The translations under genes were made by a program, and so were the position numbers. Positions 45,123 through 52,135 of a DNA stretch of 64,000 nucleotides are shown piece after piece. How positions within the stretch are numbered: position 1 is the stretch's first letter; each line of letters opens with the position of its first letter. The notes under the pieces were generated by a model. That model searched no databases and had not been told where the DNA came from. It saw only the letters and a program-made list of their open reading frames with translations. Origin of the DNA: Phocoena phocoena (lineage: Eukaryota > Chordata > Mammalia > Artiodactyla > Phocoenidae); contig NC_089238.1 of the NCBI RefSeq assembly GCF_963924675.1, forward strand, positions 25,959,815 to 26,023,814, written 5' to 3'.

Positions 45123-45642
45123 TGTTAGACCCAAGCGGTCTGCGAGAGATTCCAACTCGCCCAAGAACCGCCAAGAGTCGAGAGCCGCTGCAACACGCAA
45201 GAGGTTTATTAGGAGCCGATGCACCGGGGTTCCCTGAACCTCACGCAGGAGGCCGATGGGGAACCCCTAAAAGCGGAATCACATACTTTTTATAGGTTTA
45301 TTTACTCATAGGGCGGGTATATTCTCACAATGATTGGGTAAATGTGGTGACTTTTGAATTCATTGGCTTAGGAACTTTTGTCCCACCTTCTGGCCGTTAT
45401 AGTTGTCTGTTCATTGTGGCGGTTAGGGCGTATACCTGTTACGGGCAACTGGAAAATTACCCGCTGTCTGGCAAGTCCCCGTCAACTGAAAAACTCCAAG
45501 AATTGGTTTCGATAGGGAGAAGGAGTGGCGCACGATAGGGAGAAGAATTGGTTTCGATAGGGAGAAGGAGTGGCGCACGATAGGGAGAAGAATTGGTTTA
45601 CGGGAACAAGTGAGGGGGTGGAAAGTCCCTAAAGGCCCCACA
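45123..45642 (-). repeat. 3' LTR of the provirus
   Basis: 520 bp beginning TGTTAGACCC on the plus strand and ending CCCCACA. Read on the minus strand it has a TATA box (TATAAAAAG, 45286-45294) and a polyadenylation signal (AATAAA, 45205-45210). A perfect 45-bp direct repeat in U3 (45500-45544 and 45545-45589) resembles an enhancer duplication. Confidence 0.97.
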
Positions 45643-45660
45643 TTCCCCCCCTTTTTTTTT
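45643..45660 (-). other. Polypurine tract
   Basis: On the minus strand nine A then seven G then AA directly precede the 3' LTR, the usual plus-strand priming site. Confidence 0.9.
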
Positions 45661-45674
45661 GTAACTAATTTCAA

Positions 45675-46563
45675 TCATGGAATTTCAGTTTCTTTTTGCG
45701 AGTTTTGGTATTGTTGCCTTAGCATTAAAACTTGTACCGTACTAATGCGTTCTCTAATAAAGGCTATCAGGCGATTCAGAATGTATGGTCCAAAAGTTAA
45801 GAGCAACAATAAAATAATGAGGGGCCCTAACAAGGTGGAAACTAAAGTAGTAAGCCAGGGAGATTTATCAAACCATGATTGAAACCATCCTTTTTGATTT
45901 TCCCTTTCCTGTTGTCTTTTGTCCAGGCGCTCCCTAAGTTTGTCCATAGTTTTGGTAATAGCCCCAGAATGATCAATATAAAAACAGCATTCTTCTTTTA
46001 GTGCAGCACATAGTCCGCCCTCCTTAAGGAACAGCAGATCTAATCCCCTCCTGTTTTGCATTACCACCTCTGAAAGCGAGGTGAGGGATTCTTTTAACTG
46101 AGTTATGGAACTTTCTAACGCCCGGAGGTCAACATCTACAGCTTGCCTTAAGGCATCATAATAGTGGGGTTGTTGGATGAGGGCTGTTGTACCCGTTCCT
46201 ACCCCGGCTGCCATTTCTAGTCCTAGGAGTACAGCCAGGGTGAGTGTTATGGGTTCCCTCTTAAACCTTCCTCTGCCCTCATATTTATCTAGAAAGGATG
46301 AATCTGAATGATAAATGAGTCTGGGGACCAGCTGAACTAACACACAAAAATCGGTTGAAGCTTTAAGGACCTCTAAAGAAATGCAGGGGGTCAATCCTGT
46401 GTTATATGCCCACCATCCATCCGGAGGAGGGAGGAGATACCCTGAGCCCTGTGGGAGGCTTAAATTGGCACAAAGATGTCGGTGGGACGAGGGGGGCGTT
46501 CCTACACATGTACCGTTTCCTAATACTGAGGCCAGGGTCAATTTACTATTTCCTTCTTGTTTT
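45675..46563 (-). pseudogene. env: env, C-terminal SU and complete TM part
   Basis: A 288-codon open segment (45675-46541) in frame with the segment upstream but separated from it by a TGA near 46549-46551. It holds the end of the surface subunit, a furin-type site RFKR (residues 92-95), a hydrophobic fusion-peptide-like stretch (about 98-120), the gammaretroviral segment leading to CX6CC (C178, C185, C186), a membrane helix (about 230-257) and a short cytoplasmic tail. In relatives TM drives membrane fusion and the segment before CX6CC is the immunosuppressive-like domain. The TM part itself shows no break. Without SU in one frame it is not expected to act as an entry protein; it might still be translated from an internal start. 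Confidence 0.93.
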
Positions 46564-46985
46564 CATCGACATTGATCTGGAGTGTTAACATTATTATAAT
46601 TAGAATTATATCCTATAGCATCATAATAAGGGGGAGGAGCAGCATAGCAAAGCCAACATGATTTGGTAGCCTCCGGGTTTGTGGCATTTAAAACCTCAAA
46701 AGCCGCCTGGACCAATGAGAGCATTCGGTCCCGGGGGGTCTTGGGCTTGATTGTCATTCCTTTTGGCTCAAAAGTTTGGTTTCTTATCTCTGGTAACGCT
46801 GTGGGAGGGGCCAAAGGTAGCAAAGAGTGCCCTATCTCAGGGTTGGGGCCTATAGGAACTGGAGTAGGGGTTTCAATTTTTAGTTTGATGGTCATTAGTA
46901 ATCCATCATCATATCCTTCTTTATAAAACCTGATTCCCCATGAATGGCCATTTATCCAGTTTTTTATCTTTTTTTCCTGGTTCAC
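46552..46985 (-). pseudogene. env: env, middle SU part
   Basis: A roughly 140-codon open segment that shares a frame with the TM part but not with the SU N-terminus. It has the proline-rich segment typical of gammaretroviral SU (PTPVPIGPNP, LLPLAPPTALPE) and the CWLC motif that in relatives forms the disulphide with TM. It ends at a TGA, and the frame upstream shifts within 46,921-46,985, beside runs of T7 (46969-46975) and T6. So env is broken by one frame change and one stop. Confidence 0.92.
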
Positions 46986-47586
46986 TAAAAGAAATCTTAA
47001 GGGGATGGCACCATTTAGTACATTCAGGCCTATAAGTTAAGGGGTTGGTTGGGTGTGTATAATTGGCTGTCACCTTAATAAAGTCCCAGCCAGAGGTGGG
47101 CTTCCAATAGGTGTCTCCTGTGGTTTCATATCCCCAGCTTTTGCAATAAAAGTTTTCAGTTCCTCCATATTTATAATTAAGGGACCTGTGGCGATGGAAC
47201 CCGGGGCATATGTAGAAAGCAGGAGCTCTGAGCCCAGTCCTCCGAATCCCGTTTTTGCAACCCTTTCCGGAGGAATCAGCTCTAGTTGATAAAATTTTTG
47301 GAACATTATGTTGATCATAATAGTCTTCTAAATCCCAACCGGGAGCCCCTATGGCCAGTTTACAAACATCAGGAAAAAGGTTTGGCCACCAGGTCCATGG
47401 GGGAGCGATATTGCTAACAGACCATATTACATCTCCAGTCTGGGAAATTACCTGCCAGGTTAAACGCTGGGGCAGGTGAGGACTAAAATTACTCACAGTC
47501 AGTAGGGGTAACAAAGTTAAAGTTATAAATCTGATGATCGCAGAAGCTTGAGCTTGAGCGGGTTGCTGGTCTTTTGGGCTCGCCAT
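46921..47586 (-). pseudogene. env: env, signal peptide and N-terminal SU
   Basis: The likely env start is the ATG at 47,586 (MASPKDQQPAQ...), giving 221 codons to a stop at 46,921; the frame is also open upstream to 47,817 but overlaps integrase. A basic-free N-terminus is followed by a hydrophobic stretch (IIRFITLTLLPLLTV) that fits a signal peptide, then cysteines and an NYT glycosylation site as expected for a receptor-binding domain. The end (after GKKDKKLDKW) is out of frame with the following SU part. Env starts inside the 3' end of pol, as in other gammaretroviruses. Confidence 0.92.
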
Positions 47587-50580: not shown

Positions 50581-51138
50581 CCCCCCCCTTTCCGCCATAA
50601 CAGGTGGCCCTACTGGTGCGGAGGGTTGTGAAGCTGGGGGTCCTAGGGGCGACATGGGATTTAGGGCCGGAGGATAAGGAGGTGGGGAATCTAGAAGAAG
50701 CAAATCAGACTGCAGGTGAGGATATATCGCCTTTGGCGGGTCCGGGGCAGCAGATGACTTTTCCGTGTCTGGGGTTTTCTTCAGGGCCAATATCTCCGAT
50801 TGTGCTGGAGCGCATGCAGACGTGCCTGTTGAGGAAACAAAGGGCCAGACCCACGGAGGCGGGGAGAGAACTAGATCTTCCCAGACCAGGATATATGGTA
50901 TCTGGTCTGGGTGTCCGTGGGATCCTGTGTTAAAGACCCTAGACTTGACTAGCCCAACCTTATCTAACAAAAAAGATCCTTCGGGTGGCCACCCTGTCTG
51001 AAATGTAGGCCACTCAGAGGTACACAGCGTTTGCCATTTTCCTTTCCTTACTTCTACCGAAAGGTTGTGGGCCCTAGCCCTAATTTCGGTCCAGTGGCTT
51101 AGGGTAAGAGAAAGAGGAGTCGTCATAGTTCGTCCCAT
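50518..51138 (-). pseudogene. gag: gag, matrix and p12 part
   Basis: The ATG at 51,138 gives MGRTMTTPLSLTL, with Gly2 for N-myristoylation, then a matrix domain (about 1-100) and a proline-rich p12 region with a PPPY late-budding motif (152-155). After about residue 184 the frame leaves the gag frame beside an eight-C run (50581-50588 on the plus strand) and ends at 50,518; the capsid continues in another frame. In relatives gag builds the virion at the plasma membrane. The rest of the domain looks well preserved. Confidence 0.93.
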
Positions 51139-51595
51139 TGTCGTCCGTCAAAAGAAAGATAATAGTACAGAAAAACAATAAAATTTCAAAAGACACACAT
51201 TGATATTGCCGCCGCGAACTTAAACCCGAAACCAACTCAAATTCAGATGGCAGCTTATATAACCTGCCAGAACCAGCCGCCGCGAACTTAAACCCGAAAC
51301 CAACTCAAATTCAGATGGCAGCTTATATAACCTGCCAGAACCAGATGAAGGGGAGACAAAATTTGTTTCTCCTTCCAGATGGACCACCAGGGCGTCCCCC
51401 GGGGCCCGTGGACACCAGCTTTCGGCACGTCTGCCTAGCCAGGAGTCCAATACAGATTCCACAGCAAGCCGGTTCGCACGGCTTTTTCCTAATGGCGGCT
51501 AGCAACAAACAAACGACAAACAAACAGACAATTGGGCTCGAGCCTACCTGATACCTCCGACTCCCGATGTTCTTGTGACCCGGGGGCGAGTGGGG
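51139..51595 (-). other. Proviral leader (5' untranslated region)
   Basis: Sequence between the primer site and gag, where packaging signal and splice donor would lie. It holds a perfect 68-bp tandem duplication at 51208-51275 and 51276-51343. Confidence 0.85.
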
Positions 51596-51613
51596 ATCCC
51601 GGACGAGCCCCCA
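51596..51613 (-). other. Primer binding site, tRNA-Pro
   Basis: On the minus strand TGGGGGCTCGTCCGGGAT, the exact 18-nt proline-tRNA site used by many gammaretroviruses, two bases from the 5' LTR. Confidence 0.95.
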
Positions 51614-51615
51614 AA

Positions 51616-52135
51616 TGTTAGACCCAAGCGGTCTGCGAGAGATTCCAACTCGCCCAAGAACCGCCAAGAGTCGAGAGCCGCTGCAACACGCAAGAGGTTT
51701 ATTAGGAGCCGATGCACCGGGGTTCCCTGAACCTCACGCAGGAGGCCGATGGGGAACCCCTAAAAGCGGAATCACATACTTTTTATAGGTTTATTTACTC
51801 ATAGGGCGGGTATATTCTCACAATGATTGGGTAAATGTGGTGACTTTTGAATTCATTGGCTTAGGAACTTTTGTCCCACCTTCTGGCCGTTATAGTTGTC
51901 TGTTCATTGTGGCGGTTAGGGCGTATACCTGTTACGGGCAACTGGAAAATTACCCGCTGTCTGGCAAGTCCCCGTCAACTGAAAAACTCCAAGAATTGGT
52001 TTCGATAGGGAGAAGGAGTGGCGCACGATAGGGAGAAGAATTGGTTTCGATAGGGAGAAGGAGTGGCGCACGATAGGGAGAAGAATTGGTTTACGGGAAC
52101 AAGTGAGGGGGTGGAAAGTCCCTAAAGGCCCCACA
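51616..52135 (-). repeat. 5' LTR of the provirus
   Basis: 520 bp with no difference from the 3' LTR in a by-eye comparison. TATA box at 51779-51787 on the minus strand; U3 45-bp direct repeats at 51993-52037 and 52038-52082. Transcription would run leftwards through gag. Confidence 0.97.

What the first reader, a model, noticed from the sequence alone, without database searches (positions are those of the whole stretch)
45123..52135. Very young gammaretroviral provirus in a cetacean genome
The two 520-bp LTRs show no difference in my base-by-base reading, and the 4-bp AGAA target duplication is perfect. Identical LTRs normally mean recent integration. Young, possibly polymorphic gammaretroviral insertions are uncommon in whales.
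Basis: partly seen in the sequence, partly recalled or inferred. Interest (0 to 1): 0.85.

Follow-up and report, generated by a model that had tools for sequence, protein, structure and literature searches.

The report
Pol-deleted hitchhiking retrovirus family in cetacean
The window holds a very young retrovirus insertion, but it is a crippled copy, one of over a hundred in this probable toothed-whale genome that lack the same piece of the copying enzymes and so were probably spread by relatives that still have it.

Summary
The two 520-bp LTRs (45123-45642, 51616-52135) are identical and the AGAA target duplication is perfect. Joining the flanks restores one continuous MIR element.

The reading needs revising. 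The provirus lies on the minus strand and is a defective gammaretroviral (class I) element. Protease and the RT polymerase region are gone, and nucleocapsid is fused in frame to the RT C-terminal part/RNase H/integrase. Gag and env each carry a frameshift and a stop.

It is not a lone insertion. The same deletion junction occurs at 116 places in the host genome, this one included (backwards control 0). The missing RT segment gives 53 first-look candidates. Fourteen other LTR-pair proviruses have perfect 4-bp duplications; 11 of 14 have identical LTRs. The deletion, and each lesion checked, recurs in other copies, so crippled genomes were copied, presumably in trans by RT-bearing relatives.

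Young gammaretroviral insertions in toothed whales are already published (PMC8297934), and PMC10435555 lists Phocoena sinus among invaded species. The mechanism is known from dogs (PMC6407205). New here is this large pol-deleted subfamily. Polymorphism and host species were not established.

The parts
45119..45122 (.). Target-site duplication AGAA, left copy
52136..52139 (.). Target-site duplication AGAA, right copy
51616..52135 (-). 5' LTR, 520 bp, identical to the 3' LTR; TATAAA about 51782-51787, an AATAAA about 51698-51703
45123..45642 (-). 3' LTR, 520 bp
51991..52092 (-). 45-bp direct repeat, 2.3 identical copies in U3, with a CCAAT motif every 45 bp (same in the 3' LTR at 45498-45599); enhancer-like by position only
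51596..51613 (-). Primer-binding site of proline type (tRNA assignment recalled)
45643..45660 (-). Polypurine tract next to the 3' LTR
51208..51344 (-). 68-bp perfect tandem duplication in the leader; 1, 2 or 3 copies in the 13 other deleted copies looked at
50521..51147 (-). gag 5' part, matrix (Gag_MA); reading frame shifts within p12
49791..50609 (-). gag capsid (Gag_p30), ended by a premature stop at the capsid/nucleocapsid boundary (49788-49790)
49596..49787 (-). Nucleocapsid part; its zinc knuckle is altered; runs into the deletion junction
49593..49595 (-). Deletion junction: 3 nt in place of about 1485 bp (protease and RT polymerase region), frame kept; found at 116 places in the genome
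47526..49592 (-). RT C-terminal part, RNase H, integrase including MLVIN_C
46924..47850 (-). env surface-subunit N-terminal part, its start overlapping the pol end; frameshift follows
46566..47036 (-). env surface subunit, continued in another frame; in-frame stop at 46563-46565
45678..46562 (-). env C-terminal part with transmembrane subunit, open
44943..45122 (+). Interrupted MIR element, left part
52140..52177 (+). Interrupted MIR element, right part, followed by a tRNA-derived SINE (type recalled)

Best explanation
The element is one recent germline insertion of a non-autonomous, pol-deleted gammaretroviral subfamily. An ancestor lost protease and the RT polymerase region in one event (about 1485 bp replaced by 3 nt, frame kept). 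Its RNA kept LTRs, primer site, leader and polypurine tract. It was packaged, reverse-transcribed and integrated by proteins supplied in trans by RT-bearing relatives, recombined with other family RNAs during reverse transcription, and piled up further lesions while spreading to at least 116 places. Shown: the deletion, the 116 junctions, perfect target duplications in the pairs examined, near-identical LTRs, recurring lesions, mosaic site patterns, RT-bearing relatives in the same genome. Inferred: helper supply in trans, packaging, germline timing, which relatives were helpers.
For: Alignment runs unbroken across the junction in 13 of 18 other proviral copies (found by LTR similarity); the other 5 break off at the same base on both sides. 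LTR sites v1-v3 occur in all 10 fetched LTRs of RT-bearing copies and in none of those of deleted copies; three further copies were placed correctly from the LTR (1 deleted, 2 RT-bearing). 40 of 40 scored hits of the junction stretch span it, window included. A 30-nt junction pattern with at most 1 mismatch occurs 116 times, reversed control 0. Target duplications are perfect in 14 of 14 other pairs, 11 of them deleted copies, so these are separate integrations. The capsid/nucleocapsid stop is in 23 of 30 junction loci, window included, in 5 of 13 deleted and 0 of 5 RT-bearing copies of the LTR-picked sample; the env stop in 4 of 5 copies with letters there, the other 6 of the 11 having a gap. 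212 of 630 pairs of informative sites show all four combinations among 12 deleted copies. The RT segment: 53 first-look candidates, 40 scored, 40 of 40 at 97-100%.
Against: No expression, particle or helper activity was observed. The samples favour the window's kind: 40 LTRs scored of 544 candidates, 40 junction hits scored of 229 and 30 of these read. The knuckle lesion and the window's p12 frame recur only in a minority (4 of 30 each, window included). 53 and 116 come from different search types, so the ratio is approximate. Whether RT-bearing copies are competent was deliberately not examined. Some frame differences could be assembly errors or recurrent, and conversion between copies would also give four-combination patterns. 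Own target duplications were checked in 11 deleted pairs besides the window, not in all 116 places.
Confidence: 0.9

Rival explanations
1. A lone, fresh integration of an otherwise ordinary exogenous or endogenous gammaretrovirus that decayed after insertion.
For: Identical LTRs and perfect target duplication.
Against: The deletion is at 116 places and each point lesion checked recurs in at least some other copies on other chromosomes, so they predate this insertion.
Confidence: 0.03
2. An older insertion whose LTRs were made identical by gene conversion.
For: Two of 15 family pairs (C9, C18) differ at sites polymorphic in the family and not in CpG context, as conversion between copies would give. 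One LTR pair alone allows up to about 3.5-7 My at the assumed rates.
Against: The sister copy on C9 is also nearly identical internally: 0 differences in 1401 bp, 1 in 751, and 1 substitution plus 1 indel in 691.
Confidence: 0.08
3. Copies spread by segmental duplication or L1 machinery, not by retroviral integration.
For: Some copies lie close together (C14, C15, C19). An L1 lies near the window's provirus.
Against: 14 of 14 other LTR pairs have own perfect 4-bp duplications and complete 520-bp LTRs.
Confidence: 0.04
4. The fusion left by the deletion (Gag joined to RNase H/integrase without protease) was kept because it is useful to the host, for example as an interfering Gag.
For: Frame is kept across the junction. 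3 of 13 deleted copies are open across the fetched 1401-bp piece.
Against: 10 of 13 are not open there. The stop before nucleocapsid is widespread (23 of 30).
Confidence: 0.04

Closest known systems
CfERV-Fc1(a) of dogs and wild canids (PMC6407205, start of abstract and passages read)
   Same: Young gammaretrovirus-like ERV; eight proviruses share one internal deletion and most share inactivating changes; authors infer spread by trans complementation and template switching
   Different: There the common deletion is in env (1073 bp) and its carriers are mostly older; here it removes protease and RT polymerase, most dated carriers have identical LTRs, and they outnumber the RT-bearing candidates
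Odontocete gammaretroviral 'secondary host switching' lineages 118-123 (PMC8297934; abstract, sections 10-12 and passages read)
   Same: Gammaretroviral, toothed-whale-specific, some with identical LTRs and high copy number (lineage 121: 251 copies in Kogia breviceps)
   Different: That paper infers mainly reinfection from purifying selection; the parts read mention no pol-deleted subfamily. Which lineage this is could not be tested
Killer whale endogenous retrovirus KWERV, GQ222416 (paper not held; seen only as citations)
   Same: Gammaretroviral ERV of delphinoid whales (as cited in PMC4664997, passages)
   Different: Sequence not available here; no direct comparison made
ERVi of Phocoena sinus (PMC10435555; abstract, section 9 and passages read; P. 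sinus seen in a figure legend)
   Same: Recent invasion in a porpoise; the window's capsid is 98% and env TM 95% identical to P. sinus proteins
   Different: ERVi by definition have intact genes and proven polymorphism; the window copy fails the first and the second is untested. Whether that ERVi is gammaretroviral or this lineage was not seen
Deleted-form HERV-H of primates (recalled)
   Same: A pol-deleted class I form more numerous than its full-length relatives
   Different: Much older; recalled, not compared

Membership tests
Gammaretrovirus-like (class I) ERV | Gag MA and p30 of gammaretroviral type | tested here: met
   PF01140 3.8e-44, PF02093 2.5e-101; capsid chains of PDB matched
Gammaretrovirus-like (class I) ERV | MLV-type RNase H and integrase with MLVIN_C | tested here: met
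Gammaretrovirus-like (class I) ERV | TLV_coat envelope with gamma-type TM | tested here: met
   PF00429 1.4e-104; TM chains of PDB matched
Gammaretrovirus-like (class I) ERV | 4-bp target duplication, TG...CA LTRs, proline-type primer site | tested here: met
   4-bp duplication in 14 of 14 other pairs; tRNA name recalled
Gammaretrovirus-like (class I) ERV | Gag and Pol in one frame separated by a read-through stop | tested here: inconclusive
   That stretch is deleted in the window copy; not read in RT-bearing copies
Replication-competent provirus | Intact gag, pol and env | tested here: not met
ERVi (criteria of PMC10435555) | Identical LTRs | tested here: met
ERVi (criteria of PMC10435555) | Genes without disruptive mutations | tested here: not met
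ERVi (criteria of PMC10435555) | Insertional polymorphism | not testable with these tools
   One assembly only; one full-length match of the left flank
Trans-complemented non-autonomous ERV subfamily | Inactivating lesions shared by independent insertions | tested here: met
   11 deleted copies with own target duplications share the deletion; wider counts
Trans-complemented non-autonomous ERV subfamily | RT-bearing relatives in the same genome | tested here: met
   7 among 21 other proviral copies examined; 40 scored hits; competence not examined
KWERV | Sequence identity to GQ222416 | not testable with these tools
   paper not held; the record was not available to compare
SHS lineages 118-123 of Zheng et al. 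| Placement in one of these lineages | not testable with these tools

The most novel reading that the evidence does not exclude
A germline counterpart of defective-interfering genomes: a protease- and RT-less gammaretrovirus that outnumbers the RT-bearing form in a living cetacean, is still spreading and insertionally polymorphic, and gained its success from the deletion itself (shorter genome, packaged at the helper's expense, possibly interfering through a protease-less Gag fusion).
Probability: 0.2. Interest if true: 0.7.

Novelty: new member of a known kind. Interest (0 to 1): 0.48.

Why it matters
It gives a large and young set of insertions in which one deletion event and its later lesions can be followed through more than a hundred copies next to RT-bearing relatives in the same genome. 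That makes mobilisation in trans, recombination between co-packaged genomes, and the effect of a parasite of a parasite on retroviral invasion testable in a long-lived mammal. It also warns that identical LTRs alone mark neither a lone nor a competent provirus.

Tried and rejected
Relatives in IMG/VR by capsid: 3 pattern stretches, none confirmed. Env TM against phage records: none. Rfam over the window at gathering thresholds: none. Proteins spanning the deletion junction: 115 hits; none with a cetacean name covered more than 52% of the stretch (the two above that, P0136 and P0223, are a bat and an avian-virus entry), so the fusion is not seen among predicted proteins in that length range. 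Hypermutation (APOBEC) was not tested. Naming the host species was not possible: the assembly is unnamed and no cetacean nucleotide collection is held. Solo LTRs were not counted genome-wide: 3 of the 10 unpaired LTRs among the 40 scored have matching flanks, the other 7 show an inner flank of a provirus on one side. Mutation rates of 1e-9 and 5e-10 are assumed; the paper search for a rate gave only a listing, none used.
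Full report
What is there. 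The window's LTRs at 45123-45642 and 51616-52135 are identical over 520 bp and flanked by AGAA on both sides. Primer site and polypurine tract place the provirus on the minus strand, 5' LTR at 51616-52135. The insertion splits a MIR element; joining the flanks gives one continuous alignment. The LTR carries a 45-bp repeat (2.3 copies) and the leader a perfect 68-bp duplication.

Anatomy. Pieces between stops were searched apart. They give Gag_MA, Gag_p30, RNase H, integrase with MLVIN_C, and TLV_coat (2 of the 8 pieces sent, 51326-51733 and 50390-50704, had no match). The open 754-residue piece starts with nucleocapsid and passes at about residue 65 straight into the C-terminal part of RT: protease and the RT polymerase region are missing. 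Gag has a frameshift in p12 and a stop at the capsid/nucleocapsid boundary, the nucleocapsid zinc knuckle is altered relative to a Pseudorca relative, and env has a frameshift and a stop. The pol/env overlap is the usual gammaretroviral arrangement (recalled), not counted as a lesion.

Relatives. The best named proteins are cetacean: Phocoena sinus (capsid 98.2%, env TM 94.6%), Tursiops (capsid 94.2%), Kogia (env SU about 76%). A Delphinus Pol is 86.5% identical over RNase H-integrase; a protein of an unnamed 7.1-kb contig is 97.8% identical. A capsid tree of the window and 27 rows that I picked from the hits groups the window with Phocoena sinus, Tursiops, Pseudorca and Kogia rows (100/99); a second Phocoena sinus protein falls elsewhere. 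No call names the host. The SINE in the right flank has 7 further copies of about 200 bp and 4 shorter pieces in the window; its cetacean character is recalled.

The family. The assembly (2.51 Gb, 439 contigs) gave 544 first-look LTR candidates, 40 scored, all 40 at 99-100%. These were 30 LTRs in 15 pairs, window included, and 10 unpaired. All 14 other pairs have perfect 4-bp duplications; 11 of 14 have identical LTRs and 3 differ at one site. By the coordinates, LTR-to-LTR offsets are 5795-6559 for eleven of them, 6493 for the window, and 7965-7992 for three.

The deletion. For 18 other proviral copies the stretch around the junction was fetched: 13 align unbroken across the junction; 5 match the window up to 49596 and again from 49592. 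Between these edges lie 1485 bp in four of the five and 1486 in the fifth (my reckoning from the coordinates). LTR sites v1-v3 are present in all 10 fetched LTRs of RT-bearing copies and in none of the deleted ones; one solo LTR has v1 and v2 only. Used as a predictor, they placed three further copies correctly (one deleted, two RT-bearing). The totals are 15 deleted (window included) and 7 RT-bearing; the sample is biased towards the window's LTR.

Counts. The 401-bp junction stretch gave 229 first-look candidates; 40 of 40 scored, window included, span the junction at 99-100%. A 30-nt pattern across it, at most one mismatch, occurs 116 times, window included, control 0 (the first 100 places are listed). 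The RT segment missing from the window, taken from one RT-bearing copy, gives 53 candidates, 40 scored at 97-100%. The deleted form is thus about twice as frequent as the RT-bearing candidates, with the caveat that the searches differ.

Recurring lesions. In 30 junction loci, window included, taken from the best of the 40 scored, the capsid/nucleocapsid stop occurs in 23, the knuckle lesion in 4, and the window's p12 length in 4. LTR-picked sample: stop in 5 of 13 deleted copies and 0 of 5 RT-bearing; knuckle lesion in 1 of 18; no indel against the window in p12 in 3 of 13; env stop in 4 of 5 with letters there, gaps in the other 6 of 11; no env indel against the window in 2 of 11. So the point lesions are not family-wide, but each recurs elsewhere. 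The leader repeat has one, two or three copies. 212 of 630 pairs of informative sites show all four combinations among 12 deleted copies. The simplest account is copying of dead genomes in trans with template switching; conversion between copies is not excluded.

Age. Zero differences in one pair leave an upper 95% bound of 3.5 My at 1e-9 per site per year, 7.1 My at 5e-10 (rates assumed). Three differences in 15 pairs give about 0.19 My (upper 0.56) at 1e-9. Two substitutions in about 2843 internal bp between window and the C9 copy give an upper bound of 1.3 My at 1e-9, 2.5 My at 5e-10, for their common source, outside the LTRs (alignments). Two of the three LTR differences sit at family-polymorphic non-CpG sites, pointing to conversion. 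The pairs were picked for similarity to the window, so the pooled age is biased young.

Polymorphism. The 700-bp left flank has one full-length match in the assembly and 33 short repeat matches, so no second allele is seen; this says nothing on population frequency.

What is known. PMC8297934 reports ten recent lineages with identical-LTR ERVs, among them gammaretroviral lineages 118, 119, 121 and 122 of toothed whales. PMC10435555 names Phocoena sinus in the legend of a figure on invading ERVs. PMC6407205 describes shared lesions and trans complementation in dogs. Among the titles and abstract starts listed by searches (one found nothing) I saw no paper on a pol-deleted cetacean subfamily; only open-licence PMC texts were searched, and LaMere 2009 and Wang 2013 were not read.

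Verdict. Observation right; 'young' right; 'rare lone provirus' wrong. It is a member of a large, recently amplified, non-autonomous family whose mechanism of spread is known in kind.

Noticed in passing
window 17769-17841: The tRNA-Trp call of ARAGORN overlaps a weak match to the flank SINE (17748-17847), so it is probably a SINE head, not a gene.
   Followed up: partly
window 54274-59082: A decayed L1 on the minus strand: ORF1 domains at 58147-59082 and a reverse-transcriptase piece at 56033-56701.
   Followed up: no
window 13000-14110: Overlapping long open frames on both strands; three of them were sent to Pfam without match; GC is higher than in the preceding 12 kb, possibly a CpG island.
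   Followed up: no
G000 C14 26.49-27.08 Mb, C15 8.761-8.769 Mb, C19 38.368-38.388 Mb: Deleted and RT-bearing copies lie close together, which might be clustered insertions or local duplications.
   Followed up: no
L013/L014 and L011/L012: The two LTRs of one provirus differ at a site polymorphic in the family, suggesting conversion between copies.
   Followed up: partly
L084, L087, L090, L091, L092, L093: Several deleted copies carry further env deletions, some of the same size (154 bp in three, 259 bp in two), hinting at nested subfamilies.
   Followed up: no
window 51208-51344 and L065-L077: The leader has a 68-bp unit present in 1, 2 or 3 copies among family members; it lies where a packaging signal would be expected (recalled).
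   Followed up: partly
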